Source: Bosea sp. NBC_00550
GTDB lineage: Bacteria; Pseudomonadota; Alphaproteobacteria; Rhizobiales; Beijerinckiaceae
NCBI RefSeq assembly: GCF_026020075.1
Contig: NZ_CP102772.1
Location: 1 to 64,000, forward strand
Direction of reading: 5' to 3'
DNA: 64,000 nucleotides
Under the pieces are notes generated by a model. It was not told the DNA's origin, did not search any database, and saw only the letters and a program-made list of their open reading frames with translations. Within the stretch, counting starts at the first letter, position 1, and each line of letters opens with the position of its first letter. A program made the translations under genes and the position numbers. This document shows positions 23,573 through 38,036 of this stretch, in pieces.

Positions 23573-23826
23573 GTCGAACTCACTGCCTACGCGTGATACT
23601 TCAGCGCGAGATTGATCAGCGCAATCGGCAATCCGCAGACGGTTCATTTTTAAGCGCTGGGCGTGGCCCAAAAAGCACTGGGCGGCGCGGCTCTTCGCAT
23701 TGTGCGCCGTCGACGCAGCGTCGCGCCTATCTTCCCAAAGGGAATGGCGTTAATTGACATAGTCGCTGCATCCGCCGTTGCTATGCTGCTGTTGCCTATG
23801 TCCCCCATGGTTCATGTGAGCGCTTG

Positions 23827-24165
23827 ATGTCGGCCCAAGAACGCGGGCTTGCCCGTCTCATGCTTCGGTTCCCCGAGTTCCGCCAGGGCTTCGCGCGACT
23901 GCGGGGCGGCAGGTTTGGCGGCGTCTGCGAGGAGTACGACCTCGTCTGGGAGGTGATCAGCAGGTGGTCCCAAGACGAACACTGCGCGATGTTTCGCTAT
24001 GGCGATTACTGCCTTCTGGCGGCCGCGATCGAGCGCGACGCGATCGCAATGGCGAAGGCCGTGCCGGATCCCGGCGCCATCGCCAAGGCGGCTGGGGCGC
24101 AATCTGCGCCCACGGCATCCTCGGAGTTTCGACAGCCAGTGCCGCCGATATCTCCCTCTTGGTGA
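23827..24165 (+). CDS. Hypothetical protein, ERGRARLKLRF family copy B
   Basis: A 112-residue relative of the protein at 21760-22017: it shares the opening block (ERGLARLMLRFPEFRQGF) and the central CEEYDLVWEV segment, then adds an Ala/Pro-rich tail of about 40 residues. The ATG at 23827 sits directly after a possible TTG start. Function unknown. Confidence 0.55.
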   Translation: MSAQERGLARLMLRFPEFRQGFARLRGGRFGGVCEEYDLVWEVISRWSQDEHCAMFRYGDYCLLAAAIERDAIAMAKAVPDPGAIAKAAGAQSAPTASSEFRQPVPPISPSW

Positions 24166-24311
24166 AGCGGGGGCCCGCCAGCATCCGCTTCAGGATCGCC
24201 ACGCGGGAGGCCCGTGTCCGACGAGTCAGGCCTGAGACGGTTCACACGATCCCTGGTGCCCCGGCCCCGGTCCGGTGACCGGCAAACCAGCGAGCCAACA
24301 CTGTTGGGCTA

Positions 24312-24342
24312 ACAAAAACAGCCCGGCGCAAGGCGCCGGGCT
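24312..24342 (-). terminator. Terminator of the outer membrane protein gene
   Basis: Read leftwards after the stop at 24367: stem CCCGGCGC-CTT-GCGCCGGG followed by CTGTTTTTGTT. A clear rho-independent terminator. Confidence 0.85.
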
Positions 24343-24366
24343 GCTCGCAGGTCAAAAGCTGTCGCT

Positions 24367-25104
24367 TCAGAACTTGTAGTTCACGCCGACGCGCACGAGC
24401 CCGGCACCGCCGCCGCCATTGCTGACTGCGGTATAGGTTCCGGCCGGGAGCACGCCGCCCGCCGCATTGTCGAAGGATCGGGCGCGCCGGCCCTCGCCGG
24501 TATCGACGTAGAGGCCTTCGATCTTGGCCGTCCAGTTGTTGGTGAAGGCGTATTCGACACCGCCGCCGACGGTCCAGCCGGCGTTGCTCGTCGTGTTGCC
24601 GGTCAGCGGGTTGGTGTTCAGGCCGCCATAGGCCAGACCGCCGGTGACGTAGACCAGGGTTCGGTCGAAGGCGTAGCCGATGCGAGCACGCACAGTGCCG
24701 AAATAGGCGCCGTCACCGCCGCCGCGGCCATCCCACCAGGAATAGCGGCCCCAGGCCACGCTACCGCCTGCATCGACATACTGGATGTCGGTCTCGAGGC
24801 CGTAGACGATCGCGCCGGACTGCCAGTTATAGCCGATCTGGGCGCCGCCGACGAACCTGCCGTCACCACCGCCAACACCGCTCAGGACGCCGGAAGAGGC
24901 GGCCGTCGGTCCGTTGACGCCGATCTCGCCCGAGTCAGCCCAGCCCACGCCGGCGTTGAGACCGACATAAAGACCAGCCCAGGTGAACAGGGGCGCGTAG
25001 ACGGGAGCGGGAGGCGGGGCGTGGCGGCTGGGAAGATCGGCCGCGAAGGCCGAGGTTGCCAGGCAGGTTGCCAGCACAGCAGTGGAAACGAGGCCTAGAC
25101 GCAT
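24367..25104 (-). CDS. Outer membrane beta-barrel protein (Omp25/31-like)
   Basis: A 245-residue porin-family protein. A Sec signal peptide ends at AFAAD; the mature chain starts with a Pro-rich segment and then the typical TWAGLYVGLNAGVGW. Alternating beta-strand patterns fill the rest, with YAFDRTLVYVTGGLAYGG and YAFTNNWTAKIEGLYVD as family stretches, and it ends in the aromatic outer membrane insertion signal VGVNYKF. It should form an eight-stranded barrel. It is a single gene with its own terminator. Part of it is duplicated at 27193-27310. Confidence 0.9.
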   Translation of the reverse strand: MRLGLVSTAVLATCLATSAFAADLPSRHAPPPAPVYAPLFTWAGLYVGLNAGVGWADSGEIGVNGPTAASSGVLSGVGGGDGRFVGGAQIGYNWQSGAIVYGLETDIQYVDAGGSVAWGRYSWWDGRGGGDGAYFGTVRARIGYAFDRTLVYVTGGLAYGGLNTNPLTGNTTSNAGWTVGGGVEYAFTNNWTAKIEGLYVDTGEGRRARSFDNAAGGVLPAGTYTAVSNGGGGAGLVRVGVNYKF

Positions 25105-25571
25105 AATACTCTCCTAGGGTGATTTCATTAGCCGATCCGTAGCGTACGATGTTTTCAGCTGCGAAGTTGAATGATTGGTGACGCTGGCTGATCGAGGGGC
25201 CAGAAAATCACTGAGAGTGGCATTTGGGTCACTGGGTTGATACCAATGGCCACTCCTTATCTCCGTGCAAATTTCAGTCTTCGCCGCCATCCGCTGAGAC
25301 AGCTATCGGCTCCGCGAAAATCGTCGCAGCGGCCTTTCGCAAAAGGCCGCCGACGCCTCAACCCGCAACCGCCTGAAAGGCAGTCGGCATGGGGGGCAGT
25401 TCTTCATGACGAAAAGAGGGCAGTTCAGAATGTCGCTGGACACGGTCTGTTCCCGGAAGTGTTGCCCGGTTGATCCTCACGCGCAACAGCCGCCCGAGCG
25501 GAGCGGCTGTGTATGAAACCATATGCTGCCGGTCGCCTCGCTAATTGGCCCGACAGTTGCCCTCAGGCGCC
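25105..25571. other. Region between the OMP gene and lipoprotein copy 2
   Basis: About 470 bases with no supported gene. The OMP promoter lies near 25110-25160. From about 25460 to 25571 the sequence is the inverted match of the region downstream of lipoprotein copy 1, including the GC hairpin near 25490-25510. Confidence 0.45.
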
Positions 25572-25847
25572 TTACGGGCAGGGACCGGTGAAACGGCGAC
25601 CGCTCGTGTCCTGGAAGATGCAGTTGTTCGGGGTCGTTGCCCGACCGACCACCGCGCCGGCCACGCCACCTGCTACGGCACCGATGGCGGCCCCACGTCC
25701 GCCGCCCGCGATCCCTCCGATGAGCGCGCCACCGCCAGCGCCAATGGCGGCGCCGCCAAGCGTGCGGTGCGACTGGGACTCAGGGTTGCAGCCTACGAGT
25801 AAAAGGCCGAGGCCGATAAAGCCGGCGACTGTGATCGAACGGATCAT
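25572..25847 (-). CDS. Glycine-zipper outer membrane lipoprotein, copy 2
   Basis: A 91-residue lipoprotein differing from the protein at 6859-7134 at only two positions (Ile to Val at 7, Ala to Val at 18). The lipobox is LLVGC and the glycine-zipper core and TGPCP end are unchanged. The ATG at 25847 follows the same upstream sequence as copy 1 (TTCGCATTCGCGCGCAGACT). Retention of the protein while the flanks have drifted suggests recent duplication or selection. Role unknown. Confidence 0.8.
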   Translation of the reverse strand: MIRSITVAGFIGLGLLLVGCNPESQSHRTLGGAAIGAGGGALIGGIAGGGRGAAIGAVAGGVAGAVVGRATTPNNCIFQDTSGRRFTGPCP

Positions 25848-26477
25848 ATTGGGGTCCTTGCTCAAGTCTGCGCGCGAATGCGAACGCATCAATCTAATAG
25901 GCCAAGACGTCGGGTGCGCCATCGCAGAGCGACCGCATCGGTCGGGAATTCCTGTGGATGTTCATCAGGTCTCCTCCGATAGCAGTGGCCCATCACAGCG
26001 GGCGGGGAGCGCCCCCGACCACGCGTGGACGTGTGAACGGCAGGACGGCGTCCGTTCAGAAACTGTGGCGCATAAATGGGCCAACCGCTGACGCCGCTAT
26101 CGATGCCGGGGGCACGCCCAAGCACAGCCTGGATTAGCCTTTCGCTCTGCGGCGGACATCGCGGATTTTCAGCGGTTGCCACAGCCGGCCGCTCGCCATC
26201 ATGCGGACATTCGATCTCGGGGCGTGAGCGCCGCCAGAGCCCCTGGGACGTCAGCCAGCTTCGCCGCAGCCGCTGGGCTGTCTCCGGCGGTAAGGTTGCC
26301 CCGCAGTCGTTGCGCGTCGCCGGGCCGCTCTGACAGCTGCTACCATGAGCCTTGTCCCGCGCGGCTATGTCTTTGACCAGATCAACGTCCAGCTGACTGG
26401 CATCGTCGCTTTCGTTCGACGGTCGAACGACCGATAGAGTATACCGTAGCGGACACATCACAGGTGGCGCAAAACGG
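25848..26477. other. Stretch upstream of lipoprotein copy 2 and the recombinase
   Basis: About 630 bases without an intact gene. It contains a 23-codon frame at 25894-25965 (minus strand) with a strong ribosome site GGAGGAG that opens MNIHRNSRPM, an IS481-transposase-like start matching the stub at 6746. The rest shows no supported coding region. Confidence 0.4.
25894..25965 (-). pseudogene. IS481-like transposase 5' stub or leader ORF
   Basis: Twenty-three codons starting MNIHRNSR with GGAGGAG just upstream. The opening resembles the MNIHKNARLTP start of IS481-type transposases, then decays to a TAG. It lies 46 bases before the lipoprotein start, so it could also act as a leader ORF. The same block occurs upstream of copy 1. 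Confidence 0.35.
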
Positions 26478-26509
26478 TGTCCGTAAGGCTTGACGCGAGC
26501 CTACGGACA
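26478..26509. promoter_or_regulatory. Palindromic site upstream of the serine recombinase
   Basis: Inverted repeat TGTCCGTAAGGCT ... AGCCTACGGACA (12 of 13 bases pair) with an eight-base centre, 44 bases before the recombinase ATG. A related pair (GCGGACG / TACGGACG) follows at 26520-26540. Position and symmetry fit a resolvase res/crossover site or its operator. Confidence 0.55.
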
Positions 26510-26552
26510 TGCATTTCTGCGGACGATATCTCTACGGACGGGAAGCTCGCCC

Positions 26553-27188
26553 ATGCAGATTGTGTTCTATGCCCGCGTCTCGACTGCCGATCAGACCATT
26601 GCCCATCAGGAGCGGCAGGCGCGGGACGCCGGCTTCGCGATTGACCGCGTGGTCGCTGACAATGGCGTCTCCGGCGTCAGTAGCCGGCTTGCCGAGCGGC
26701 CAGAGGGCCAGCGCCTGTTCGACCTGCTCCGGGCCGGGGACGTGTTGGTCGTGCGCTGGGTCGACCGGCTCGGGCGCAACTACGCCGACGTCACCGAAAC
26801 GATCCGGGAGTTCATGCGACGGGGTGTGGTCATCAAGACCATCATCAACCGCATGACCTTCGACGGGGCCACGGCAGACCCGATGCAGCAAGCCGTCAGG
26901 GATGCCCTTATTGCCTTCATGGCAGCCTCGGCGCAGGCGCAGGCGGAAGCTACAAAGGCGGCACAGGCGGCTGGCATCGAGCACGCGAAGGCGAGCAATG
27001 GCAGCGCCTACAGGGGCCGCAAGCCGAGCTTTACCCGAGCGCAAATGGAAACCGTTCGGGACCTGCTGGCGCAGGATGCAGGTGTCAGCGTCATCGCCAG
27101 GACGACCGGTCTGTCCCGGCAGGCGATCTACCGGATGAAGGATGATCCCGCGGAGGCAGAGGCGGCGCTGGCGAGGTGGGGGATATAG
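26553..27188 (+). CDS. Serine recombinase (resolvase/invertase family)
   Basis: A 211-residue small serine recombinase. The catalytic domain opens MQIVFYARVSTADQT, where Ser10 is the nucleophile, and continues with the Arg-rich catalytic residues in VVRWVDRLGRNYADV. The long helix and a C-terminal helix-turn-helix (DLLAQDAGVSVIARTTGLSRQAIYRM) bind the site. The start at 26553 has GGGAAG about ten bases before it; the longer frame from 26490 would run across the palindromic site. It probably resolves or inverts DNA at the nearby palindrome. No transposase is adjacent, so it may be the survivor of a Tn3-like or other element. Confidence 0.85.
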   Translation: MQIVFYARVSTADQTIAHQERQARDAGFAIDRVVADNGVSGVSSRLAERPEGQRLFDLLRAGDVLVVRWVDRLGRNYADVTETIREFMRRGVVIKTIINRMTFDGATADPMQQAVRDALIAFMAASAQAQAEATKAAQAAGIEHAKASNGSAYRGRKPSFTRAQMETVRDLLAQDAGVSVIARTTGLSRQAIYRMKDDPAEAEAALARWGI

Positions 27189-27192
27189 CCAT

Positions 27193-27310
27193 CTAGCCGG
27201 CGTTGCCCAGGGTGTTGCCGGTGAGCGGGTTGGTGTTCATCCGGCCAGAGGCCAGACCGCCGGTGATATAGACGGGGGTCCGGTCGAAGGCGTAGGCGAT
27301 GCGGGGCAAA
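27193..27310 (-). pseudogene. Internal fragment of the outer membrane protein gene
   Basis: About 118 bases that match the middle of the gene at 24367-25104 and encode the same segment (YAFDRTPVYITGGLASG ... NTNPLTGNT). No start, signal or C-terminus. It is a relic of a second OMP gene, or of recombination, between the recombinase and kup. Confidence 0.7.
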
Positions 27311-27376
27311 GGGGAAGCATGCCTTGCTACCACCGCTGCTGCATGCGCTATTCCCATGTAACGGGGAGTCCGGCGC

Positions 27377-29299
27377 ATGGCTCGTGAGGTTCTTTCGCAA
27401 GACGGCTCTGCGTCTCACCGCGATCACAACGGCTCCGTCCGCGCCCTGACGCTCGGCGCTCTGGGCGTCGTTTATGGCGACATCGGCACCAGCCCGCTCT
27501 ATGCGCTCAAGGAAGCGGCGAGGGCCGCGGCTGCCGGAGCAGCCTTGCGGCCGGAAGCCGTTATCGGCTGTGTCTCGATGATCCTCTGGGCGCTGATCCT
27601 GATCATCTCGATCAAGTACTCGATCTTGATCCTGCGCGCCGGCAATCGCGGCGAAGGCGGCATCATGGCGATGCTGGCCCTGCTCAAGGCGCGCCATGCC
27701 AAGCCCGGCACAGGGCGCGCCTATGTCCTCGTCGTCGGCCTCGTCGGTGCCGCCTTGCTCTATGGCGATGGCGCGATCACGCCGGCCATCTCTGTGCTCA
27801 GCGCGATCGAGGGCCTCAAGATCGACGCACCGATGCTGGCGCCGGCCGTCGTGCCGCTGACCGCCGCGATCCTGATGGGCGTCTTCCTGGTCCAGAGCAA
27901 GGGCACCGGCTTCATCGGTCGGCTGTTCGGGCCGATCATGCTGCTCTGGTTCCTGGCGCTCGCTCTGCTCGGCATCCGGGGCATCCTGATGGCGCCGGAG
28001 ATTCTCGCAGCGATCAACCCGTTGAAGGCGCTCTACTTCATTACCCACACCGCCCCGCTAGTCGGCTTCGCCGTACTGGGCGCCACATTCCTGGCTGTGA
28101 CCGGTGGCGAGGCGATGTATGCGGATATGGGCCATTTCGGTCCAAAACCCATCCGCCTCGCCTGGTTCACCATCGTGCTGCCTGCGCTGATGCTCAATTA
28201 TTTTGGCCAGGGCGGGCTGCTGCTCACCCAACCTGCAGCCCTTACCAACCCATTCTACCAACTCGCCCCGGACTGGGCGCACTACCCATTGATCTTCTTC
28301 GCCACCGCCGCCGCCGTCATCGCCTCGCAGGCGGTAATCACCGGCGCCTTCTCGCTTACTCGACAGGCAGTGCAGCTGGGCCTCTTCCCCGCCGTCCACA
28401 TCAAGCACACGGCTCATGACCAAAGGGGACAGGTCTACATTCCGATCGTTAACTGGATGATCTGCCTGGCGACACTCACCTCGGTCTTCATGTTCCGCTC
28501 GTCCGATGCGCTGGCCGGCGCCTATGGCATCGCCGTCTCATTGCTCATGGCCATCACCACCGGACTTGCAGCGCTGATCGCCCTCAAATGGGGCTACAAC
28601 CCAATCCTTGTCGTGGCGGTCAACGGCTTCTTCCTGCTGATCGACCTTGCCTTCTTCTCCGCCAACCTGCCGAAGCTGCATGAAGGTGGCTGGTATCCCC
28701 TGGTCCTGGCGCTCGTGCTGGTGGTGGTCATGCTGACCTGGCGGGGCGGCCTCGCTTTGGTGGAGGCCGCGCGTGGCCGCCAACGCGAGCCGGAGTGGGA
28801 CTTTCTCAACATGCTCGCGACGAACCCGCCACTCCGCCTGCCGGGCACCGCCGCCTTTCTGGCCTCGGCCGCGCGCGGGCTTCCGCTCTCACTCACGCAT
28901 TTCGTTCGCCACAATCATGCCCTGCACGAGCGCGTTCTTCTTGTTACCGGAAAGCTCGAGGAAATCCCGCGCGTGCCCGACGAAAACCGGATGCAGGTGA
29001 TCGAACTCGCGCCAGGCGTCACTCGCGTGATCCTGCATTTCGGTTTCATGGAGACGCCACGTATTCCCGATGGCCTGCGCTGCGGCGCCGACCGGGGTCT
29101 TCTGCCGGGCGTCGATCTCGACCAAATGTCGTACTACATTGGCCGCGAGACGATCATTCCGCGCGCGGACATAGTGGGAATGGCCATGTGGCGCGAGACG
29201 CTCTTCTCCTTTATGCAGCGTAACGCCGAGCGCTCAGCTGCCCATTTCCACATCCCGGCGAAGCAGGTTGTGGAGGTCGGCGTGGAGATCGAGATCTGA
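27377..29299 (+). CDS. kup: Kup-family potassium uptake protein
   Basis: K+:H+ symporter, 640 residues. The N-terminal family motif ALGVVYGDIGTSPLYAL is complete, followed by about twelve membrane helices and the family stretches YGDGAITPAISVLSAIEG and GGEAMYADMGHFG. A C-terminal cytosolic domain of about 190 residues begins near WDFLNMLATNPPLRLPGTA and ends with a regular IEI. The length is typical (620-640). It is a single gene, with an accessory element beginning about 150 bases downstream. Confidence 0.96.
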   Translation: MAREVLSQDGSASHRDHNGSVRALTLGALGVVYGDIGTSPLYALKEAARAAAAGAALRPEAVIGCVSMILWALILIISIKYSILILRAGNRGEGGIMAMLALLKARHAKPGTGRAYVLVVGLVGAALLYGDGAITPAISVLSAIEGLKIDAPMLAPAVVPLTAAILMGVFLVQSKGTGFIGRLFGPIMLLWFLALALLGIRGILMAPEILAAINPLKALYFITHTAPLVGFAVLGATFLAVTGGEAMYADMGHFGPKPIRLAWFTIVLPALMLNYFGQGGLLLTQPAALTNPFYQLAPDWAHYPLIFFATAAAVIASQAVITGAFSLTRQAVQLGLFPAVHIKHTAHDQRGQVYIPIVNWMICLATLTSVFMFRSSDALAGAYGIAVSLLMAITTGLAALIALKWGYNPILVVAVNGFFLLIDLAFFSANLPKLHEGGWYPLVLALVLVVVMLTWRGGLALVEAARGRQREPEWDFLNMLATNPPLRLPGTAAFLASAARGLPLSLTHFVRHNHALHERVLLVTGKLEEIPRVPDENRMQVIELAPGVTRVILHFGFMETPRIPDGLRCGADRGLLPGVDLDQMSYYIGRETIIPRADIVGMAMWRETLFSFMQRNAERSAAHFHIPAKQVVEVGVEIEI

Positions 29300-29445
29300 T
29301 CGCCACGCCTTGACCCTGCCCTTGAGAAGCAGATCGCAAAAGCGTTCAGCGAGAAGCAGTGGCCGTGGTCTCGGCCCGGACGGGTCACACAATCCCGGTC
29401 CAGCCGACCGGAAGCGCGAGCACGCGGTCGGCTCCCTCGCCAAGC

Positions 29446-29892
29446 TCAATGATGATCGTCCTCCCCTGACGGGACGCCCCGCGCGTTTCTCTCGAACCAT
29501 GAAGCAAGATCGTCACCCCATAAGGCGGCGAGTTCAGAGGGGCTGCAATCATAGGGCGAGCGAGGGTTCAGCGCTTCGATGCCTTTCCGCCAGCGCCCTT
29601 GATGCTTCGGCGGCAGAAGCGGGTTATTCACGTCGATCGGCTTGTCGTCCATCGCCTTGAGGACGTCCTTCATCCGCAGCGAACGCGGTTTCCGCCGGGT
29701 CTGCGTGTTCCGCTCCGTCGCGAGCTTCTTGAAATGCACCAGGTCGCTGACCAGGCGGGCATAGGCGGGGACGTTTGTCTGCCGGAGCTTTTCGATCACC
29801 TCCGCGCCGTGTTCGGCGACATCGGCGGCCACGAGTTCGATGATCGATGCGCCGAGGCGATCCCGGGCGTTGAGCAGGTTCCTTCGCTGCAT
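29446..29892 (-). CDS. Phage-type hypothetical protein
   Basis: About 148 residues from the internal ATG at 29892 (MQRRNLLNARDRLGASII). The opening pattern (ARDRLGASIIELVAADVAEHGAEVIEKLR ... PAYARLVSDLV) matches a small phage protein family that often sits near terminase genes. A basic middle (RRKPRSLRMKDVLKAMDDK) and an acidic tail follow. It is the leftmost gene of the putative integrative element. Its role is not known; a DNA-packaging or replication link is possible from family context only. Confidence 0.55.
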   Translation of the reverse strand: MQRRNLLNARDRLGASIIELVAADVAEHGAEVIEKLRQTNVPAYARLVSDLVHFKKLATERNTQTRRKPRSLRMKDVLKAMDDKPIDVNNPLLPPKHQGRWRKGIEALNPRSPYDCSPSELAALWGDDLASWFERNARGVPSGEDDHH

Positions 29893-30321
29893 GGCGGCTT
29901 CTCTCGCGCCTGCGCGCGACGCGCGCGAATGGGGCAATTCTAGCAGGAACCAGCTGTCCGTATCTGGCGAAAAGTAAGACGCCGCAGTTGGCCGGCAACC
30001 GCCTTTGGCGCTGCGCCTCCATCGATCATCGCAGCCAGGGCTTCAGGAACCGCCAGGGGGAGGTCTGCTTCAGGCGGGTCAGCCGGGGCTGGCCTGTCGT
30101 CGGCCGATCTCGTGAATATAAATTCATTCGATTCAAGTTTAACCCAGAAGTTCGTGTTGAAATTCTAATAATACGAACTACTCCAATTTATTATGAAGGC
30201 AAAAACGAATTGACCCTGTATGTCGTCGATGATATCGTTATTATATTATTACTTATAGGCTCGCGGACTGGAGGCGCGTGCGTTAAGTGGTCGACAACAT
30301 TCTAGCGTGAGGATGTTTTCC
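29893..30321. other. AT-rich intergenic stretch in the element
   Basis: About 430 bases, of which 30115-30260 is strikingly AT-rich compared with all neighbours (AATTTATTATGAAGG, TTATTATATTATTACTTATAG). No gene is supported. It may be a promoter region for the divergent genes on each side or an origin-type unwinding region. Confidence 0.45.
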
Positions 30322-31131
30322 ATGCAGAAATTGCCGCCCCGGAATTCGTTCTCTCCGCCCCGTCGCCTGATCGGCGACGGCGGTCCGCCGCCAAACGGCG
30401 TCGCGCAGGCCAAGCCGGTCGCGCCCTACCGCGACCCGGCGATGGTCGGTTCGAACTACGACCGGCTCCCGAACGAAGGCTATATGACGATTGACGCCGA
30501 CTGGATCATTCCGGCGTTGCTAAAGGGCGTCCCGATCGAGGGGCGGATCCTGGAGCCGTGCGCAGGCCGCGGCCACATGGTCTACGCTCTCCGCCAGGCC
30601 GGGCTTGTTGTGATCGCCCGCGATCTGTTCGCCTATCCCGACCCGTTGGTCGCCGACATCGAGAGCGGCTGCGATCTTCTGGACATCAGCACACTGACCG
30701 GTTTCGACTGGGTGATCACGAACCTGCCTTTCAAGGATCAGGACGAGTTCCTCGCGCACCTCCTGCGCCTGGCAACCGAGGCCGGATGCGGCGTGGCAGT
30801 GCTGACGCGGCTGGAGTGGACTTCGGCGCAAGCGCGTCGTTTCCTTGTTCACGACCATCCGAACTTCGCGGGAAACGTGCTGCTGACGCGCCGTCCGCGC
30901 TGGAGTGAGGACGAGAAGGCGGCTCCGCGGCACAATTTCTCCTGGTCCGTCTGGCAGCCCGAGCCTCGGCCAGCCTCACGGCCCGCGTGGCTTCGGTTTG
31001 ACCAATTCACGCGCGCGTCTGCCGCGCTTCAGACCGGCCGTCGCCTTCCCACCTCACGGTCGGTAACCCGCTTGCACCGCGAGCGGCCAGAACGTGAGGG
31101 CCCCAACTTACGTCCTGGCTTCGAGGAGTGA
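30322..31131 (+). CDS. Orphan DNA adenine methyltransferase (phage type)
   Basis: About 269 residues. SAM-binding motif I is ILEPCAGRGHMVYAL (about 76-90) and the catalytic motif is WVITNLPFKDQDE (about 130), a variant of the N/D-PP-Y/F site with Leu in the second position. The short length and lack of a target-recognition domain resemble phage-encoded methyltransferases. GTGAGG lies nine bases before the ATG at 30322; a GTG at 30307 would add five residues. No restriction enzyme is adjacent, so it likely protects or marks the element's DNA. The N-P-P-to-N-L-P change leaves activity open. Confidence 0.7.
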   Translation: MQKLPPRNSFSPPRRLIGDGGPPPNGVAQAKPVAPYRDPAMVGSNYDRLPNEGYMTIDADWIIPALLKGVPIEGRILEPCAGRGHMVYALRQAGLVVIARDLFAYPDPLVADIESGCDLLDISTLTGFDWVITNLPFKDQDEFLAHLLRLATEAGCGVAVLTRLEWTSAQARRFLVHDHPNFAGNVLLTRRPRWSEDEKAAPRHNFSWSVWQPEPRPASRPAWLRFDQFTRASAALQTGRRLPTSRSVTRLHRERPEREGPNLRPGFEE

Positions 31132-31294
31132 GGTGCGACCTTTAAAGATCACGCTGAGGCAGCAATCGGGCATCGACGCTTGCCGCTTGCGTTTCGCGCT
31201 TCGCCCGCACCTGCGGTGGCTCCCGCCCCCTCACCCCCGCACCCCTCCCCCCTAAAGGGGGAGAGGGTGCGGTACGGGATTGGGGGCTGTAGTT

Positions 31295-31334
31295 TTCCGC
31301 ACCTTCCCGCACCTCTTCCGCACCTCAGGTGCGG
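31295..31334. repeat. CCGCACCT repeats next to the replication gene
   Basis: Three direct copies of a C-CCGCACCT unit within 30 bases followed by an inverted AGGTGCGGG, just after the stop of the primase-helicase gene. They could be iterons of an origin or part of a terminator. There is no T-run suited to a terminator. Confidence 0.4.
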
Positions 31335-31339
31335 GAACG

Positions 31340-33682
31340 TTATTCGGGAACAATAATGTATTTCCTGCCATCGCTGTTCTTGTCCGGGCGCTTTTCCTCT
31401 CGCAGGTGGCCGGCTTGCACCAGGCGCCGGATGTATCCACGGATCCTGTCCCTCTGTTCCTTAATTTCGGGGTCGAGGTTCAAGAGCGGGCCAAGCACGT
31501 ATCCGACCCAATCTTCAGCCGCGAAGTGGGCTCGGTAGTTGCCGGCGCGGACCGTGGCCTTGATATCCTCGAGGAGAGCCGGGGATATCGTCGTGTCCGC
31601 CAACCGCGCCTCCCACGGGACCGGTACGCCGATATGATCGCCTTCCGGGTTGTCGGCATCGTGGTTGTAGAGCGGGACGTTCTCGAGCCTGATCCAGGTC
31701 GAGGCATGGGCCGGCGGCGCGTGGTTGGTCTTGCCATCGACGAGGCGCAGGTGGCGCCAGCGCTGCTGCGGATCGATCCCGAAATTCTCCGCCTCTTTCT
31801 GCGTCATGCGCTGCACCAGGCGAACGTGGCGGCAGCCGTCGACGAAGGCAGCGGCCCCGCGGGCGTCACCGGCTTCGAGTTCGCGGGCTTGGCCGGCGGG
31901 GCCTTTGCGCGCGTGATGGACGAGCAGAATGGCGCAGTTTGCTCTGGTTGCGACGGCAGCCAGGGCCTTGATCACGGCGTCGACGGCGACGTTGTCATTT
32001 TCCGGGATGCCGTGCGCCGAGATCACCGGATCAATCACGAGGACATCGAGACCGTGCGCGACAATCGTCGCCTCGAGCCCGGCGAGGCTCGCCTCGTCGA
32101 GGGTGAACCCGTGGCCGTCGGCGCTGGCGATCTTGAGCGGCAGATCAAGTCCGCTCTCGAAGAACAACCGGCCTTCGTATTGATCGGGCGTGATACCGAA
32201 TTGCCGTGCGACGCCAACGAAGCGGCGCTCGAGTTCGTCGATTGGATCTTCAAGGTTCCAATACAAAACCCTGAGGGGCCGGATTGGGAGGTCGTGCAGG
32301 AGCCGCCGCCCGGTCGCCATCGCCAGTGCCTCGACCATGGCGACGATCGACTTTCCCGATCCGCCAGGCGCGACGAGGGCAGAGACGCACTGCCGCAAAT
32401 AGGCTTTGCCGTAGAGCCAGCGCCGCGGCGTAATGTCCTTGGCCGGGCGAAGGACGCGCGGCTGGATTGGCAGCACCTCCGGCTCGGGGGGCTCGTCCCA
32501 CCCTTCCGTGTCGTCCCCGCCGCCGCCGTCGGGGTCTGGCTCGGGGGGCTCATCCCACCCCTCGGGCCCCTCTCCGGCGTCCCGGGCTGGATTGTCCCCA
32601 TCCGCAGTGCGGTCCCCGGCGGGCGGGCCCCCATCCGCAGTGCCGTCCCCGGCGTCGTCAGCGGCCTCGTCCCAACCCCCGGTGCCGACTCCGGCGCCGC
32701 TGGCGGGTCTGTCCCAACCCTCGGTGCCGTCCGCAGGGCCGTCGTCGGGCCGAGCGTGAGCGTTCGTATCGCCACTGCTGCCAGGCTCCGGGCCAAGATT
32801 TGGGTCCGGGCGCCTGGACGGCTTCCTCCAGCCCGGGACCCGCCCAAAAACTTCAGCGAAGAGGCTCGCGGCCGTGATCGACCGGATGTCGGTGAAGCTC
32901 TCCCAGGTAGCCCTCGTGTGATCTGGATCGTAGCCCCACCACTTTTGGGACCATCTGTCGAAGGCCTCGAACGAGGCTCCCCCGGCCCGCGCCGCCATGC
33001 CGATCTTCAGCCACTTGTCACGGTCAACGTAGTCATTGGGCAGGGCGTCGAGCGCGGCCTCGACATCCGACGGGATGCAGGTGTGAAAGAAACCGAAGAT
33101 CTTGCCGTTGGCTCCTGCCGGAGCGTCGGCTGTCGTCTTCGCCGACATCGGCCAGCGTGCCTTGCACTCCCTCTCGAACGCTTCTTCCTGCCCCTCGGTG
33201 ATCAGCGGCAGATCGTCGAATGGAACCGCGTCGAGCGGCACATCGCGCCACTCGTAGGGCACGCCGGACACATGGTCGCCGAACGCGACAAACTGCTGAC
33301 CGTCGCCGAGTATCTCGATCTTGCTTCCGGTGTGAAAGGGCAGCGCGATCGTCCGTTTCAGGCGCGGCCGGTCGGAGCGGTAAACGGACAGTACGCGCGG
33401 TGAATTGCTTCGGAACCGCGTCGGCGCCGGCCCGAAATGTTTCTCGACCAGCGCCTCGACCTCGGCTGCCCTGTCGGGATCGTCAACGTCGATGTCGACG
33501 GCGCGCAACTTGTCGCAGCGAATTCCTGTGCTCGCGCCTTCCTGGTTGAAGACCGGCACGCCGGCCGTCTGCCGCCAGCCCGCCTCGAATGGCGCCTTCC
33601 CGGCGGTCCGCACGGCGATGACGCGATAGCCCCTGGCGTCCAGGCGCTCGCGAAGCTCCGTCACCTCGCGTTCGAGGGTCAT
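31340..33682 (-). CDS. Prim-pol / PriCT / RepA-like AAA ATPase replication protein
   Basis: About 780 residues in three parts. Residues 1-190 are a bifunctional primase-polymerase domain with the acidic pair in AVDIDVDD (about 60). Residues 200-265 are a PriCT-2 domain (DRDKWLKIGMAARAGG ... WWGYDPDHTRATW). After a long linker (about 284-407) comes a RepA/DnaB-like ATPase with Walker A GGSGKS (about 438) and Walker B VLVIDP (about 548). Such proteins prime and unwind DNA at the origin of phage satellites and plasmids. The linker repeats a GWDEPPEP-like unit four times. The start at 33682 overlaps the stop of the upstream gene by ATGA. C-terminal winged helix may bind the origin. Confidence 0.8.
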   Translation of the reverse strand: MTLEREVTELRERLDARGYRVIAVRTAGKAPFEAGWRQTAGVPVFNQEGASTGIRCDKLRAVDIDVDDPDRAAEVEALVEKHFGPAPTRFRSNSPRVLSVYRSDRPRLKRTIALPFHTGSKIEILGDGQQFVAFGDHVSGVPYEWRDVPLDAVPFDDLPLITEGQEEAFERECKARWPMSAKTTADAPAGANGKIFGFFHTCIPSDVEAALDALPNDYVDRDKWLKIGMAARAGGASFEAFDRWSQKWWGYDPDHTRATWESFTDIRSITAASLFAEVFGRVPGWRKPSRRPDPNLGPEPGSSGDTNAHARPDDGPADGTEGWDRPASGAGVGTGGWDEAADDAGDGTADGGPPAGDRTADGDNPARDAGEGPEGWDEPPEPDPDGGGGDDTEGWDEPPEPEVLPIQPRVLRPAKDITPRRWLYGKAYLRQCVSALVAPGGSGKSIVAMVEALAMATGRRLLHDLPIRPLRVLYWNLEDPIDELERRFVGVARQFGITPDQYEGRLFFESGLDLPLKIASADGHGFTLDEASLAGLEATIVAHGLDVLVIDPVISAHGIPENDNVAVDAVIKALAAVATRANCAILLVHHARKGPAGQARELEAGDARGAAAFVDGCRHVRLVQRMTQKEAENFGIDPQQRWRHLRLVDGKTNHAPPAHASTWIRLENVPLYNHDADNPEGDHIGVPVPWEARLADTTISPALLEDIKATVRAGNYRAHFAAEDWVGYVLGPLLNLDPEIKEQRDRIRGYIRRLVQAGHLREEKRPDKNSDGRKYIIVPE

Positions 33683-34248
33683 CCCGCCCAACCTTCTGGT
33701 TCGGTCGCATCGGACGCGCCCGCGTTCTGGGAATGGGAGCGGTCGGGGTTCGGGAACGCCTGGTTGCGCGGCACCCAATCCACCACCCTGTAGGCGAGCA
33801 GCCGCGTTTCATGGTCCCCGAACTGGATCGGCTGCGATGGGCCGAAGACGATGAGCGGGACCAGGCCGCGTCCGAACCGGGGTTCGCATTCGTTGTAAAG
33901 ACGGGTGACGAATTCGCAGTGTGAGTACGTCCAATTGGTCATTTCGAATGCGATGTCGGCGACGCCGAAGGCCTTCGGCGCGAGGGCGAACAGCGACAAT
34001 GCGGGCTTTGCCTCCGCCGTCGGCGGCGGCGGCATCGGACCGTCGAGCCCCGGGACCGGCGTGAATTTACGCTTGCCGCTGCCGTCATGGCCGGTAAGCC
34101 AGCCGCGCCGGACGCGCTCGATATCGATCGCAACGGCCTGGCCCTCGAGCGAGATGAAGCGGGAGCCCGCCTTGCTGCTGATCGCCCACTCGTCGCGTGA
34201 TGGGGCGTAGCGGATGTACGGCCGACGGATCGGCATCGCGATCGGCAT
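33679..34248 (-). CDS. Hypothetical protein coupled to the replication gene
   Basis: About 189 residues from the ATG at 34248 (MPIAMPIRRPYIRYAPS). It has a beta-rich front (DEWAISSKAGSRFISLEGQAVAIDIERV), a Pro-rich middle and a C-terminal region with LVPLIVFGPSQPIQFG. I recognise no domain. The overlap with the primase-helicase (four bases) means that the two proteins are made together, so it likely helps replication of the element. The longer frame to 34320 is less likely because of an AT-rich control region directly upstream. Confidence 0.5.
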   Translation of the reverse strand: MPIAMPIRRPYIRYAPSRDEWAISSKAGSRFISLEGQAVAIDIERVRRGWLTGHDGSGKRKFTPVPGLDGPMPPPPTAEAKPALSLFALAPKAFGVADIAFEMTNWTYSHCEFVTRLYNECEPRFGRGLVPLIVFGPSQPIQFGDHETRLLAYRVVDWVPRNQAFPNPDRSHSQNAGASDATEPEGWAG

Positions 34249-34481
34249 GATGGAGCCTCCATTTCGGAAGACCGCCGGCGCAGGACAGCGCAGCCCGCCA
34301 AGCTCCAGAGATGTTGTCAATCTCTGTGGCCGTGCGGATGGAAGTATTAGCGACGGTATTTCTATTTATTCACGGAATATCTTGTCGGAAGACAAGACCA
34401 TTATTCGTTCTATGAGGACGTAACGACAAAATTAATCTTACGTGTCGGCTGACATCGTCAGATATCCCGCGTCCATTGGCC
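34249..34481. promoter_or_regulatory. AT-rich control region upstream of the replication operon
   Basis: From about 34330 to 34445 the sequence turns AT-rich (TATTTCTATTTATTCACGG) and contains a perfect six-base hairpin CTTGTC-GGAA-GACAAG at 34381-34396. It lies between AlpA-like regulator and the replication operon, all on the minus strand, so it probably holds the promoter controlled by the regulators. Confidence 0.45.
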
Positions 34482-34694
34482 TCAGGTCGATGTCTGCATC
34501 CGGCCAGCGAGCCACTGCTCGACGTCGCGCCAGCGGTATCGGACCGCCCGGCCAAGCTTCAGGAACTCCGGGCCGGTGCCGTGGCAGCGCATGCGCGCCA
34601 CCGTGTTCTCGGCGAGGCCAAGGCGCTCCGCCGTTTCCCTTGAGGTGAGGAGCTGCTCGGGAGGGGTGGTCGGCAAGCGTCCATTCATCAGCAT
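34482..34694 (-). CDS. AlpA-type helix-turn-helix regulator / excisionase
   Basis: Seventy residues, a MerR-like winged helix of the AlpA/excisionase group. The motif is LLTSRETAERLGLAENTVARM ... GPEFLKLGRAVRYRWRDVEQWL, the standard helix-turn-helix with the RYRxxDVExWL wing. I begin at the ATG at 34694 (MLMNGRLP); 34688 is a close alternative. AlpA proteins drive integrase or replication genes in P4-like satellites. It sits directly upstream of the replication operon's control region and downstream of a second protein of the same class. Confidence 0.8.
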   Translation of the reverse strand: MLMNGRLPTTPPEQLLTSRETAERLGLAENTVARMRCHGTGPEFLKLGRAVRYRWRDVEQWLAGRMQTST

Positions 34695-34773
34695 GCTCCT
34701 CGGGCAGCGTTGAATAGTGGGGCGCGGCAGCGCGCCCGGGTCGCGGGGAACACGCCGCGGTCGATTGGCGCGT

Positions 34774-35046
34774 TCACAGGGTTTCGGGCGGCTCGGTCGC
34801 TCGTTGCCTAACTTGTGGCGGGGTGCCGGAGGAGCTGTCCGCGCGCTGCTCAATCCAGGCGACGAGGTCCCTGGCGCGCCACCCGAGCTTTCGCGTGGAG
34901 AGCCGCAGCGGGAGGGGCGCCCGTCCGCTCCGCGAGAGGCGTCGCCAGTGTGCGACGCTGAAGCGGCAGAACGCGGCGGCCTCAGCGGTGCTCAGGACGC
35001 GATTGCCAGCGATCGAGGCGGGGAGATTGTCGAGGAGGTTCGCCAT
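34774..35046 (-). CDS. Second AlpA-like helix-turn-helix protein
   Basis: Ninety residues. The core NRVLSTAEAAAFCRFSVAHWRRLSR ... LRLSTRKLGWRARDLVAWIEQR is another AlpA/excisionase-type winged helix. It lacks a strong leader; the ATG at 35046 is chosen where the motif region begins. Two such proteins in a row are unusual for an element this small and could split the jobs of excision and replication control. The last codons lie 80 bases before the next gene. Confidence 0.75.
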   Translation of the reverse strand: MANLLDNLPASIAGNRVLSTAEAAAFCRFSVAHWRRLSRSGRAPLPLRLSTRKLGWRARDLVAWIEQRADSSSGTPPQVRQRATEPPETL

Positions 35047-35176
35047 TCCGTGACACTCACAAGAAGCTCGAGAGGTGGGCTTATGAGAGCAGAATTGGCT
35101 TTGGCGGGTCGTGAAGTCCAAGGGGAAGTTGTCGATCGAGCGACGCGCAAAAACCCCTAAAGCCCGGGACTGACCG

Positions 35177-35956
35177 TCAGGTGGGTTCCGGCTTGGCGCC
35201 TGCGCCCCTTCGCCGGGCCGCCAGCACCTCCGAAATCGCATCCGCCATCGTGTCGTGCGAGCCATGGTGTTGGCGGTACGGTTCGGGCACCGCTTGCATG
35301 ACGGCCCATGCGAACTGCGTGAATGGGGTGGTGCGGGACTTCTCGCTTTTTTTCGAGGCCGTGACCGGTAGCCCCTGACCTTCGAAGACCGCGGCCAGCT
35401 CGGTCACGAAAAATCGCCAGCTATATGAGGTGTCGAGGGGTGACCGGGTCTTTTCCTCGGCATCCAGTTGGTCGACTGCTTGGCGGGCCCGGGCCGCCAG
35501 GCTCAACAGTACCGGATGAACGTCCTCCCTGCGAAAGCTGGTTGAATTCCCAACATCGACCTTTTCAAGACGGCGCCACGTCTCAGCCATATCCCCCTGG
35601 TCAAGCGCCGCGACCAAGTCGCGCGATGCACGCCTGATCCGCTTGAGCAAGGATCCGACTTCGTCATGGGTGGTGCCGTGGATGAGCGACGCCCGCTCCC
35701 AGCAGAATTGCTGGGCCACACGATGCACCAGGGCCAAGTCATGCCCTGACAGTGCAAACCCCTCCAGCGCCTTTTGCCAGCCCGGCAGTAAGTCCGGGGC
35801 AATCTCACCACCGAGCAAGACCGCACCTCTCGCGGGTACGGGCTTGCCTTGAAGGACGTCACCGAGATGTTCGCCCGGGACCACGTATGCCCGTTCGATC
35901 TTTGGTCGTACCGCAAGCGATTTGCGCGGGTTGCGGACTGGTTGACGCTTAGCCAT
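35177..35956 (-). CDS. Hypothetical protein, element cargo
   Basis: About 259 residues with no recognised domain. The front (VRNPRKSLAVRPKIERAYVVPGEHLGDVL) is basic and extended; the rest is helical (HDLALVHRVAQQFCWERASLI; LLKRIRRASRDLVAALDQGD; LLSLAARARQAVDQLDAEEK). No signal peptide and no membrane segment. It lies between the integrase pair and the AlpA genes in the same direction, the spot where satellites often carry cargo such as phage interference or defence genes. That function is guessed from position only. Confidence 0.55.
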   Translation of the reverse strand: MAKRQPVRNPRKSLAVRPKIERAYVVPGEHLGDVLQGKPVPARGAVLLGGEIAPDLLPGWQKALEGFALSGHDLALVHRVAQQFCWERASLIHGTTHDEVGSLLKRIRRASRDLVAALDQGDMAETWRRLEKVDVGNSTSFRREDVHPVLLSLAARARQAVDQLDAEEKTRSPLDTSYSWRFFVTELAAVFEGQGLPVTASKKSEKSRTTPFTQFAWAVMQAVPEPYRQHHGSHDTMADAISEVLAARRRGAGAKPEPT

Positions 35957-36054
35957 GGCCATTTTCTCCGAACCGGCTCCCGAAATTGGCGCCGGCGCGC
36001 GCGACCGAGCGAGCCCTCGGCGTTGATGGAGAGGACGCTGGCTCCAGGCCCAGG

Positions 36055-36522
36055 TTACGAACGAGGATCAGCCGGGCTCGGCCCAGCGGGCTCGTCGCGT
36101 CTACCGGCTGCGGTGATACCGATGCGTGCAAGCTCCGCCTCCACCTGTTCGAGGGTCATGTGCTCGACCTTGGTCGACGGCAGCTGGCCTGTCGGCGCCT
36201 CGATCGATTTCGGCTCGCGCCAATGGGCCGACCTGGTCCGCAGCAGCATCTCATTGGCTCGGAGCGCCACGCCCAAATCGTCGGTCTGATTGGCGAGCGC
36301 CAGGATGTTGCGGGCGGCGAGTGCCAGGAACTGGTACTCGGTCAGCTCCAGCTCCTCCTTGTAGTGATATTCCAAAGCCTCGACGCCGATGCGCAGGATC
36401 CGGGCGATGATCTCCTTCGGCACCCTGTTGTAGGCGTGAGCCCTCACCACCGACCGCGTCGTCTCGGTCGGCTCGTGCTGGTTGGGCCCCAAGGCGCCCG
36501 GCGGTGGTGCTTCGACCGTCAT
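36055..36522 (-). CDS. Terminase-small-subunit-like DNA-binding protein
   Basis: A 155-residue protein. The front half has a helix-turn-helix pattern (VPKEIIARILRIGVEALEYHYKEEL) like that of phage small terminases and related DNA-binders, followed by a helical block AARNILALANQTDDLGVALRANEMLLRTRSAHWREP that fits the oligomerisation region and the W-R-E ending of such proteins. The C-terminus is flexible. It overlaps the integrase stop by four bases. A small terminase without large terminase or capsid genes is typical of phage satellites that redirect a helper's packaging. The identification is by pattern only. Confidence 0.5.
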   Translation of the reverse strand: MTVEAPPPGALGPNQHEPTETTRSVVRAHAYNRVPKEIIARILRIGVEALEYHYKEELELTEYQFLALAARNILALANQTDDLGVALRANEMLLRTRSAHWREPKSIEAPTGQLPSTKVEHMTLEQVEAELARIGITAAGRRDEPAGPSPADPRS

Positions 36523-37748
36523 CGCATCTCTCCGGGCACTGGCTCCAGGCGGCCTGAAAGACGTGCTGTCGAGCTTGGCTGCGCTGCCAACAGCTCCGCA
36601 ACGTGCTGGCCCCAGCGCTCGAGCGCATCGCGTCGCTCCGCCATGAACTCGTGGCGCTGGTAGACTGCCGCGACGCCGGAAATGGTGCCGGACGTATGAT
36701 TGAGGATCTTGTCGGCTACGTGAGGAGCTATTCCGAGCCGGGCCATGCCTGAAACGGCCGTCCGCCTCAGATCATGCAAGCGCCAGCCGACAATCCCGGC
36801 TAGTCCGTCCAGCTCCCGCTTCGCCTTGGAGAAGTTATTGAAGGGGGCAGCGCCGCTCGGGGTGAAGACGTAGTGCCCGAGCCGAGGCATGCGCCGGATC
36901 AACGCGGCCGCGGGATCCGTCAGATGGACCAGGTGGGGCCGGCCGTTCTTGGTTCGCCCCGCGGGAAGCGTCCAGGTCCGCGCCTCAAGGTCGATCTCGT
37001 CCCAGCCCATCCGGGCGACTTCCTCGCGGCGCTGGGCCGTCAGGGCCAGCAGTTCCACGATACCGCCATAGGCACCACCCAATTGACGGGCTGCCATCAG
37101 CACCTGGGCCAGTTCCGCGTCGGACAGCACGCGATCGCGCGAGATCACGCGACTGGGCGCTGGGATACCATCGCAGGGCGACCGCTCGAGCAGCGCCTTG
37201 CCGATGCACCAGTTGAACAAGGTGCGCATGACCCTGAGGAGCTTGTTGGCCCCGATCGGGGCTCCCCGGTCGACGACCTCGCCCAGGCAGGCCACCACGT
37301 CCCGTTTGGTGATGGAATGGATGCTGCGCGCGCCCCAGCGCTCGACCATATCCCGGCGGAGCAGCCGCTCGATCTCCCGCCCTGACCGGCGCTTGGAGGC
37401 ATGCTGCTGGACAAACAGTTTCACGACGTCCTCGACCCGATCGCTCGACAGCCTGCGCCGCGCTTCGCCCTTCTCTGCAGCCGGGTCGCGCCCCTCCCGC
37501 CGCGCGCTGAGCACCTTGTGCGCTTCACCCCGAGCCAGATGCAACGTGACGCGGCCATGGGGCCCGATGGTATATTTGCGCAAGGCCGACCCCGCCCCGC
37601 CGGTGCGGTAGAGGACGATGAACACCTTTCGCCCGGCGGGGGTTACCTTGACGCCGAAGCCCGGCAGCGTCTCGTCCCAATAGACCAGCTCGCGCGACGG
37701 TGTCGGAAGGGCATCAATGATGGACTTGGTCAGGCGTGCCCGTGGCAT
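36519..37748 (-). CDS. int: Tyrosine-type site-specific integrase
   Basis: A 409-residue P4/bacteriophage-type integrase. An N-terminal DUF4102-like arm-binding domain (LTKSIIDALPTPSRELVYWDETLPGF) precedes the SAM-like core-binding domain, then the catalytic domain: Arg in TAQRREEV (about 239), the H-x-x-R box in LHDLRRT (about 324), His in LNHTSG (about 347), and Tyr in AVYQRHE (about 363). All key residues are present. It lies at the right end of the element, starting next to the host junction. An inverted repeat overlaps its start codon and may be its operator or an arm site. Confidence 0.95.
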   Translation of the reverse strand: MPRARLTKSIIDALPTPSRELVYWDETLPGFGVKVTPAGRKVFIVLYRTGGAGSALRKYTIGPHGRVTLHLARGEAHKVLSARREGRDPAAEKGEARRRLSSDRVEDVVKLFVQQHASKRRSGREIERLLRRDMVERWGARSIHSITKRDVVACLGEVVDRGAPIGANKLLRVMRTLFNWCIGKALLERSPCDGIPAPSRVISRDRVLSDAELAQVLMAARQLGGAYGGIVELLALTAQRREEVARMGWDEIDLEARTWTLPAGRTKNGRPHLVHLTDPAAALIRRMPRLGHYVFTPSGAAPFNNFSKAKRELDGLAGIVGWRLHDLRRTAVSGMARLGIAPHVADKILNHTSGTISGVAAVYQRHEFMAERRDALERWGQHVAELLAAQPSSTARLSGRLEPVPGEMR

Positions 37749-37783
37749 GAGGTGCTACCCAAGAGAGATATAGGTAGCCTCAT
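37747..37783. promoter_or_regulatory. Inverted repeat overlapping the integrase start
   Basis: ATGAGGTGCTACC and GGTAGCCTCAT, separated by 13 bases, form an imperfect palindrome over the integrase start codon. It is well placed for autoregulation or as an integrase arm-binding site. Confidence 0.5.
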
Positions 37784-37897
37784 AGAGCCAATTCGCTCCA
37801 TGGCTGTCAATACCAGATCAGAAAATCATCAACAAACCCAGCTAGATATCCATCTCAATCCATCCCCATCCATTTCCAGACAGCTGATCCCCGGTAA

Positions 37898-38036
37898 CCT
37901 TGCGGGAGAAGGTGCCGGCAGGCGGATGAGGGGTCGCGCCACGATCCCAACGTTCACGTATGCCTGCCGCAACTCCTAAAGCGTCGCGTGACCCCTCATC
38001 CGTCAGCGCTTTGCGCTGCCACCTTCTCCCGCAAGG
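37898..38036. repeat. Large imperfect inverted repeat between int and hisZ
   Basis: CCTTGCGGGAGAAGG...GGATGAGGGGTC (37898-37935) is mirrored by GACCCCTCATCC...CCTTCTCCCGCAAGG (37989-38035). This is a dispersed palindromic repeat type common in Hyphomicrobiales intergenic regions. It is followed by a partial GTCGAGCCCGAGCATGAC element. Confidence 0.7.

What the first reader, a model, noticed from the sequence alone, without database searches (positions are those of the whole stretch)
29446..37748. Putative phage satellite or integrative element with its own primase, AlpA pair and small terminase
In about 8.3 kb are an integrase at one end, a small-terminase-like protein, two AlpA-type regulators, a prim-pol/PriCT/AAA protein, an adenine methyltransferase and unknown cargo, but no structural genes. 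That is the architecture of P4/PICI-type satellites, few of which are described from Hyphomicrobiales. GC drops and control hairpins sit at two places inside.
Basis: partly seen in the sequence, partly recalled or inferred. Interest (0 to 1): 0.75.

Follow-up and report, generated by a model that had tools for sequence, protein, structure and literature searches.

The report
Core module of cargo-carrying genomic island
The stretch is not a small stand-alone phage parasite but the integrase end of a 38-kilobase mobile-looking island in a bacterial chromosome that also carries nitrate-respiration and potassium-uptake genes, and it holds a phage-type DNA-packaging gene that may let it travel inside phage particles.

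Summary
The genes described are real (int, small-terminase homologue, two AlpA-like HTH genes, Prim-Pol/PriCT-2/AAA, methylase-like gene; no structural gene found), but the 8.3-kb boundaries are wrong. In 27 of 29 relatives' loci hisS and hisZ are neighbours; here 38,286 bp separate them, from C1:5,686,802 (outside the window, across the contig start) to w37898, with a 7-bp core, CCTTGCG, at both ends. Removing the insert gives the palindrome found at the same place in one relative. kup, nap and a decarboxylase lie inside. A second island (23,276 bp, SDR|prmA, core CCTGCAC) carries the same module (89-93% DNA identity from w29570 on) with different cargo. So 29446-37748 is the integrase-end core module of a cargo-carrying integrative island. 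The 155-aa protein is very probably TerS: homologues directly precede a large terminase in 4 of 4 phage/viral sequences examined. Best reading: a satellite-like island that excises, replicates and may be packaged by a helper phage; these steps are inferred and no helper was identified. New variant of a known kind (PICI/I55/tycheposon-like), unusual in size, cargo and palindromic target sites.

The parts
1..37897 (.). Window part of island 1 (38,286 bp core to core; its left 389 bp lie at the end of the contig, C1:5,686,802-5,687,190)
   Evidence: hisS|hisZ neighbours in 27 of 29 relatives' loci; 7-bp core at both ends and reconstituted empty site; homology runs across the contig junction in another copy, I1 3-719, 91%
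37898..37904 (.). Right attachment core CCTTGCG, followed by the palindrome half GGAGAAGG
36519..37748 (-). Tyrosine integrase, 409 aa, about 150 bp from the right core
   Evidence: PF00589 6e-15, PF13356, phrog_1; 97% identical copy in island 2
36055..36522 (-). Small terminase (TerS) homologue, 155 aa
   Evidence: Homologues immediately upstream of TerL in 4 of 4 phage/viral sequences; P0086 continues into a TerL-like N-terminus
35177..35962 (-). Unknown, 261 aa
   Evidence: No Pfam or PHROG family; weak PADLOC PDC-S39 7.5e-4; conserved in island 2, 80%
34774..35265 (-). AlpA-like HTH protein (HTH at residues 90-141; the true start is probably internal)
   Evidence: HTH_17 1.5e-4 (below Pfam cut-off), phrog_66 1.3e-6
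34482..34853 (-). AlpA-like HTH protein (HTH at residues 68-118; the true start is probably internal)
   Evidence: HTH_17 3.8e-9, phrog_66 1.6e-8
33679..34320 (-). Unknown, 213 aa, upstream of the primase
   Evidence: No family; conserved in island 2
31340..33778 (-). Prim-Pol + PriCT_2 + AAA_25 replication protein, 812 aa
   Evidence: PF09250 2e-11, PF08707 5e-14, PF13481 1e-37; 86% identical in island 2
30307..31131 (+). DNA-methylase-like protein, 274 aa
   Evidence: phrog_799 4e-33, no Pfam hit; the island-2 copy is split over two frames
29446..29937 (-). c163: 163-aa protein of unknown function, predicted helical at low confidence; border between core module and cargo
   Evidence: 33 proteins at E<=0.001; follows a Prim-Pol gene in Microvirga sp. 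3-52 and two unnamed large genes in the G081 element, with cargo-like genes beyond it; model
27377..29299 (+). Cargo: accessory kup potassium transporter
   Evidence: PF02705 5e-172; 84-90% identity in 5 of 24 other same-genus genomes
26490..27188 (+). Cargo: serine recombinase; its region is repeated beside the c163 genes of island 2 and of L006
   Evidence: PF00239 1.6e-26; copies
16029..20067 (-). Cargo: periplasmic nitrate reductase genes napC, napB, napA, napD
   Evidence: PF03264, PF03892, PF00384/PF01568/PF04879, PF03927
9731..10894 (-). Cargo: ATP-dependent DNA ligase
   Evidence: PF01068, PF04679
838..5447 (+). Cargo: Orn/Lys/Arg decarboxylase (838-3597) and Asp-Al_Ex family permease (3723-5447)
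   Evidence: PF01276, PF06826

Best explanation
29446-37748 is the integrase-proximal core module of a 38.3-kb cargo-carrying integrative island sitting in a hairpin-like palindrome between hisS and hisZ. Shown by sequence: both ends, the 7-bp core, an orthologous empty site, and a second island in the same chromosome with the same module, its own core and other cargo. Inferred: the integrase, aided by one of the AlpA-like proteins, excises a circle; the Prim-Pol/AAA protein replicates it; the TerS homologue directs a helper phage's terminase to the island's DNA so that it is packaged and transduced. Because the core sits at one end and cargo at the other, islands can exchange cargo (nap/kup/decarboxylase here, surface-polysaccharide-type genes in island 2).
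For: Empty sites: hisS|hisZ adjacent in 27 of 29 loci (gaps 105-624 bp; 2 without hisS in the 1.5-kb flank), SDR|prmA adjacent in 17 of 29 (gaps 43-884; 12 without the SDR gene in the locus). Cores CCTTGCG/CCTTGCG and CCTGCAC/CCTGCAC at both ends of the two islands; joined flanks form palindromes, which fold as DNA at -10.2 and -8.7 kcal/mol, z -3.6 and -3.4. Joined site 1 equals the sequence in L021 at the same locus. Module 89-93% identical between islands (from w29570 on) while cargo differs. dN/dS below 1 in all 8 gene pairs compared (7 of the 9 module genes, one AlpA gene and the methylase left out, plus the recombinase): int 0.16, c163 0.26, alpA 0.34, primpol 0.42. TerS homologues neighbour TerL in 4 of 4 phage/viral sequences. 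No relaxase, conjugation or virion family in the 9 module proteins (Pfam and PHROGs) or in 18 cargo proteins of island 1 (Pfam; the 8 without a Pfam family also against PHROGs).
Against: Nothing shows excision, replication or packaging. No helper was identified: the three TerL matches (E<=1e-20) in this genome are only 31-32% identical to the TerL paired with the nearest viral TerS, and no TerS match (E<=0.001) other than the two island copies exists in the genome. dN/dS of terS (0.77, 18 changes), u213 (0.72) and u261 (0.53) is weak evidence of constraint. The AlphaFold model of TerS is low-confidence (pLDDT 67, pTM 0.42) and Foldseek against PDB gave nothing at E<=0.001. The SL25 match is short (46-65 residues) and that phage's complete genome, 33.9 kb, is smaller than island 1. 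The module is rare: in 23 of 200 genomes the primase matched at E<=1e-30, but outside the own genome the best stretches cover only the C-terminal ATPase half at 30-41%. Only 1 of 13 printed empty sites holds the exact palindrome. Two lone left-end copies (C1:4.80 Mb, C2) have no related integrase in the stretches searched. 8 of 18 cargo proteins of island 1 had no Pfam family, so an unknown transfer gene could hide there.
Confidence: 0.7

Rival explanations
1. An integrative island that is mobile or formerly mobile, but moved by conjugation in trans (unrecognised oriT), generalised transduction or not at all; the TerS homologue is a leftover or a DNA-binding regulator.
For: No relaxase or T4SS family found, but oriT-only elements would look the same; terS dN/dS 0.77; no resident helper with a related TerS found; the methylase gene of island 2 is split over two frames.
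Against: TerS lies beside int in both islands at 93.5% identity and its homologues sit beside TerL in 4 of 4 phage/viral sequences.
Confidence: 0.22
2. A free-standing 8.3-kb P4/PICI-type satellite bounded by kup and hisZ, perhaps inserted beside an older island.
For: The module is a compact unit with the gene set of a satellite; DNA similarity to the G081 (Bosea BIWAKO-01) element begins exactly at w29449.
Against: No repeat of 9 bp or more between w29300-29470 and the right end; CCTTGCG inside the island occurs only at 18619, 18772 and 27543, within genes. The partner of the right core is at the hisS side. Island 2 is likewise bounded by left end and int, with cargo between. In G081 and Microvirga genes that look like cargo also lie beyond c163.
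Confidence: 0.04
3. The end of a prophage whose late genes were replaced by chromosomal genes.
For: Int, Prim-Pol/AAA and TerS all have phage relatives; a same-genus relative has a related AAA/Prim-Pol gene about 10 kb from a TerL gene (G006:C14).
Against: No virion family in the proteins scanned; the same truncated set is kept in two islands with different cargo, and cousin elements show a similar plan.
Confidence: 0.04

Closest known systems
Gram-negative phage-inducible chromosomal islands (PICIs; PMC6092414, passages read)
   Same: Integrase at one end, AlpA regulator, primase/replication gene, terS in some, accessory genes, specific att site
   Different: 38 and 23 kb, where PICIs are usually about one third of a helper genome; Prim-Pol/PriCT/AAA primase; metabolic cargo; target is an intergenic palindrome; induction and packaging unshown; other host group
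I55-family islands moved by a jumbo phage (PMC12595487, passages read)
   Same: Large islands with tyrosine integrase, AlpA, short direct repeats, variable cargo, no autonomous transfer genes
   Different: I55 family uses tmRNA, has AlpA at the end opposite int, and defence genes in all three elements; no TerS or Prim-Pol in the passages read
Tycheposons (known here from passages of PMC10872708 and PMC11389934; the original paper not read)
   Same: Large cargo-carrying elements with tyrosine recombinase and nutrient genes; proposed as satellites
   Different: tRNA borders; other taxa; no sequence relation tested
P4-like satellites (partly from passages of PMC6092414, the rest recalled)
   Same: Int, AlpA/Vis-type gene, primase with helicase
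   Different: No psu, sid or delta-type gene found; far larger; different primase
Phages with TerS-TerL-portal-coat order, e.g. viral contig IMGVR_UViG_3300032205_000005
   Same: Related TerS, 48% identity
   Different: The island has TerS, but no TerL, portal or coat was found

Membership tests
Site-specific integrative island | Orthologous empty site and direct-repeat core at both ends | tested here: met
   for two islands
Site-specific integrative island | Excised circle (attP) exists | not testable with these tools
   No reads held; attP PCR needed
PICI | int + AlpA-type regulator + primase/rep, no structural genes | tested here: met
   cargo by Pfam and partly PHROGs
PICI | Own small terminase or other packaging-redirection gene | tested here: met
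   TerS homologue by neighbourhood in 4 of 4 sequences; biochemical function untested
PICI | Size about one third of the helper genome (usual, per PMC6092414) | tested here: inconclusive
   38,286 and 23,276 bp; the helper is unknown; not filed as a PICI
PICI | Helper-dependent induction, packaging and interference | not testable with these tools
   Needs phage experiments
P4-like satellite | psu, sid and delta-type capsid-remodelling genes (recalled) | tested here: not met
   No such family in the 9 module or 18 island-1 cargo proteins scanned
cfPICI | Own head and packaging operon | tested here: not met
   No head family in the proteins scanned
IME/ICE | Relaxase or conjugation genes | tested here: not met
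   None among the proteins scanned with Pfam; small ORFs not all scanned; oriT not tested
Tycheposon | tRNA at border | tested here: not met
   No tRNA gene in the window, at the hisS side (L063) or in L005, or in L160 at island 2's left border

The most novel reading that the evidence does not exclude
A family of alphaproteobacterial satellite islands that, unlike typical PICIs, are not trimmed to fit a small head: they keep a self-replicating TerS-bearing core at one end, swap tens of kilobases of metabolic cargo (nitrate respiration, potassium uptake, surface polysaccharide) at the other, insert into intergenic palindromes through a core flanked by inverted repeats, and travel in full-size helper capsids. 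The 38.3-kb island is a little shorter than two viral contigs that carry related TerS genes (42.7 and 45.0 kb, completeness unknown), though longer than phage SL25 (33.9 kb), which has a distant one.
Probability: 0.35. Interest if true: 0.75.

Novelty: new variant of a known kind. Interest (0 to 1): 0.55.

Why it matters
Many metabolic genomic islands have no known way of moving. Two islands in one chromosome with one core, different cargo, sequence-supported ends and a TerS homologue make the idea that such islands are phage satellites directly testable by attP PCR and by sequencing DNA from phage particles. Insertion into repeat palindromes between genes would offer harmless landing sites.

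Tried and rejected
Tested kup as chromosomal flank: rejected. Plasmid near match of the 8.3 kb: none. Primase in phage records: 230 records match, none over 80% of the query. Genome-contig scan with the primase: no relative; viral-contig scan with c163: none. tRNA or Rfam features in the window: none. PADLOC on 10 proteins: only weak hits. Considered the serine recombinase as the mover: its 757-bp unit is repeated independently and its ends do not match the empty site. Considered the C2 left-end copy as a second attP: no related integrase in the stretches searched. Considered a TerS fold match: not significant. A Pfam search of one L006 frame for AlpA found nothing, and the two large proteins of the G081 element have no Pfam family, so calling them replication genes would rest on reading only. 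Paper searches returned no paper; (Bosea + genomic island + integrase) returned one, by its title about pigeonpea bradyrhizobia (listing only).
Full report
Check of the observation. No virion-structure family was found among the nine. GC drops to 0.556 at 30.0-30.5 kb and about 0.60 at 34.0-34.5 kb.

Boundaries. Of 61 genomes searched with HisZ, 30 loci were returned, 29 of them from relatives; in 27 of the 29 hisS ends 105-624 bp before hisZ, and in 2 hisS is not within the 1.5-kb flank. None of the 29 loci showed kup (blastn and tblastn). In this genome hisS ends at C1:5,686,789 and hisZ starts at w38171 on a 5,687,190-bp contig that begins at the window's base 1. Homology to another place in the genome (C1:4.80 Mb) runs through the contig end/start junction (I1 3-719, 91%), so the junction looks genuine; a 3.5-kb repeat also starts at base 2 of the contig, so the contig was probably opened at a repeat edge. 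The hisS side reads CCCTTCTCC|CCTTGCG|TGATCGGG, the hisZ side CCCCGGTAA|CCTTGCG|GGAGAAGGTGCCGG; removing the insert gives CCCTTCTCCCCTTGCGGGAGAAGGTGCCGG, which stands at the same place in relative L021. Of the 13 empty sites printed, only L021 has this exact sequence; L012, L026 and L027 have the same kind of stem (CTTCTCC...GGAGAAG) with another loop, the others differ. A 7-base repeat alone is weak (CCTTGCG occurs at 18619, 18772 and 27543 too); the strength lies in its position and in the reconstituted orthologous site.

A second, independent island. The module recurs at C1:2.08 Mb. The first island's left end (402 bp) is found four times in the genome, itself included, one copy about 14 kb upstream of the second module's c163 gene. 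The second island runs from C1:2,062,586 to 2,085,862 with core CCTGCAC at both ends, between an SDR gene and prmA that are neighbours in 17 of 29 loci examined; in 12 the SDR gene was not in the locus. The joined site is again a palindrome, CCCTCTCCTGCACGGAGAGGGG; none of the 10 relatives' intergenic regions printed there has that exact sequence. Folded as DNA the two joined sites give -10.2 and -8.7 kcal/mol, z -3.6 and -3.4. Between the islands the module is 89-93% identical from w29570 to w37873, the left end 77%, and the rest unlike except the serine-recombinase gene; the left 120 bp or so of the module (end of c163) is replaced in island 2 by sequence shared with L006.

Cargo. Island 1: Orn/Lys/Arg decarboxylase, Asp-Al_Ex permease, DNA ligase, napDABC, an outer-membrane barrel, a glycine-zipper protein, kup; 8 of 18 cargo proteins had no Pfam family, and of these one had a PHROG of unknown function. 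Island 2: glycosyl transferase, GtrA-like, FdtA/hexapeptide and DegT/DnrJ proteins and transposase pieces. No relaxase, T4SS or virion family was found in the proteins scanned; small ORFs were not all scanned.

Small terminase. The 155-aa protein matched no Pfam family above cut-off. A viral contig encodes a 48% identical protein directly before TerL (phrog_38 1e-99), portal (phrog_156) and major head protein (phrog_334). Two more viral contigs (L221, L222) have a homologue directly before TerL, and in Pseudoalteromonas phage SL25 an unannotated 124-aa ORF with a short match (46-65 residues, 38-46%) overlaps the annotated large terminase. That is 4 of 4 phage or viral sequences examined; the metagenome proteins were not examined for context. 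One of them (P0086) continues into a TerL-like N-terminus. AlphaFold gave an N-terminal HTH and helices at low confidence; Foldseek found nothing significant. Three TerL matches occur in this genome, 31-32% identical to the viral TerL, and no further TerS match, so no helper is named.

Distribution. TerS: 4 of 150 genomes, the three others weak. c163: 5 of 150, one at 83% (G081), three weak. Integrase at E<=1e-60: 19 of 150, best outside this genome 52% (G106, beside a tRNA-Thr gene). Primase at E<=1e-30: 23 of 200, outside this genome essentially the ATPase half, with weak Prim-Pol matches also in L075 and L077. Left end: 3 of 101, a 138-bp piece in G081 and 32 bp in G148 being the only ones outside.

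c163 and cousins. The 163-aa protein has 33 matches at E<=0.001. In Microvirga sp. 3-52 (L214) a double c163 follows an integrase and a Prim-Pol/DUF3987 protein and is followed by AIPR, HerA-like and cytosine-methylase genes. In G081 (L144) c163 follows an integrase and two large proteins without Pfam family, with a serine recombinase and a cytosine methylase further on; the integrase lies next to what reads as a tRNA 3' half (ARAGORN reports no complete tRNA there). A third element in this genome (L006) has another integrase, a 1266-aa protein without a significant Pfam family and c163. So c163 seems to mark the border of core and cargo in a wider group. Its model is all-helical and low-confidence.

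Selection. dN/dS between islands: int 0.16, res 0.18, c163 0.26, alpA 0.34, primpol 0.42, u261 0.53, u213 0.72, terS 0.77; the methylase gene and the other AlpA gene were not compared. The first five suggest function kept; the last three say little.

Mechanism. Excision by integrase with AlpA-type help, replication by Prim-Pol/AAA and packaging with TerS follow from the families (PICI biology in PMC6092414, passages read) but are inferred here. Large AlpA/integrase islands moved by a jumbo phage (PMC12595487, passages) and tycheposons (passages in PMC10872708 and PMC11389934) show or suggest that big cargo islands can be satellites. The size is unlike the usual PICI and P4 hallmarks were not found, so neither membership is claimed.

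Verdict.

Noticed in passing
26433-27189; also 22479-22635, C1:1315386-1316142, C1:2075333-2076087, C1:4032373-4032627: A 757-bp serine-recombinase unit occurs in full or in part five times; all five matches end at the same 3' point just after the stop codon.
   Followed up: partly
window 2-3538: The decarboxylase region is 96.6% identical over 3.5 kb to C1:about 1.29 Mb (L200), and this repeat starts at base 2 of the contig.
   Followed up: partly
C1:4801519-4802238 (L196) and C2:137358-137738 (L198): Two further copies of the island's left end; the first abuts a CCCCTCTCC palindrome half, the second follows an MscS-like gene (by reading); no related integrase in the stretches searched.
   Followed up: partly
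L006 (C1:1306000-1322000): A third integrase element with a 1266-aa protein without a significant Pfam family and a c163 gene, 97.8% identical over 1.95 kb to the recombinase-c163 part of island 2.
   Followed up: partly
L214 3370-19078 (Microvirga sp. 3-52): Cousin element: integrase, Prim-Pol/DUF3987 protein, double c163, then AIPR, HerA-like and cytosine-methylase genes.
   Followed up: partly
25441-25974 and 6737-7266: Inverted 538-bp repeat, 88% identical, inside the island.
   Followed up: no
L005 7566-8504: The island-2 methylase gene is split over two reading frames, unlike the window copy.
   Followed up: no
L005 12136-12710: About 575 bp present between the two AlpA-like genes of island 2 but not island 1, a possible second variable slot.
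   Followed up: no
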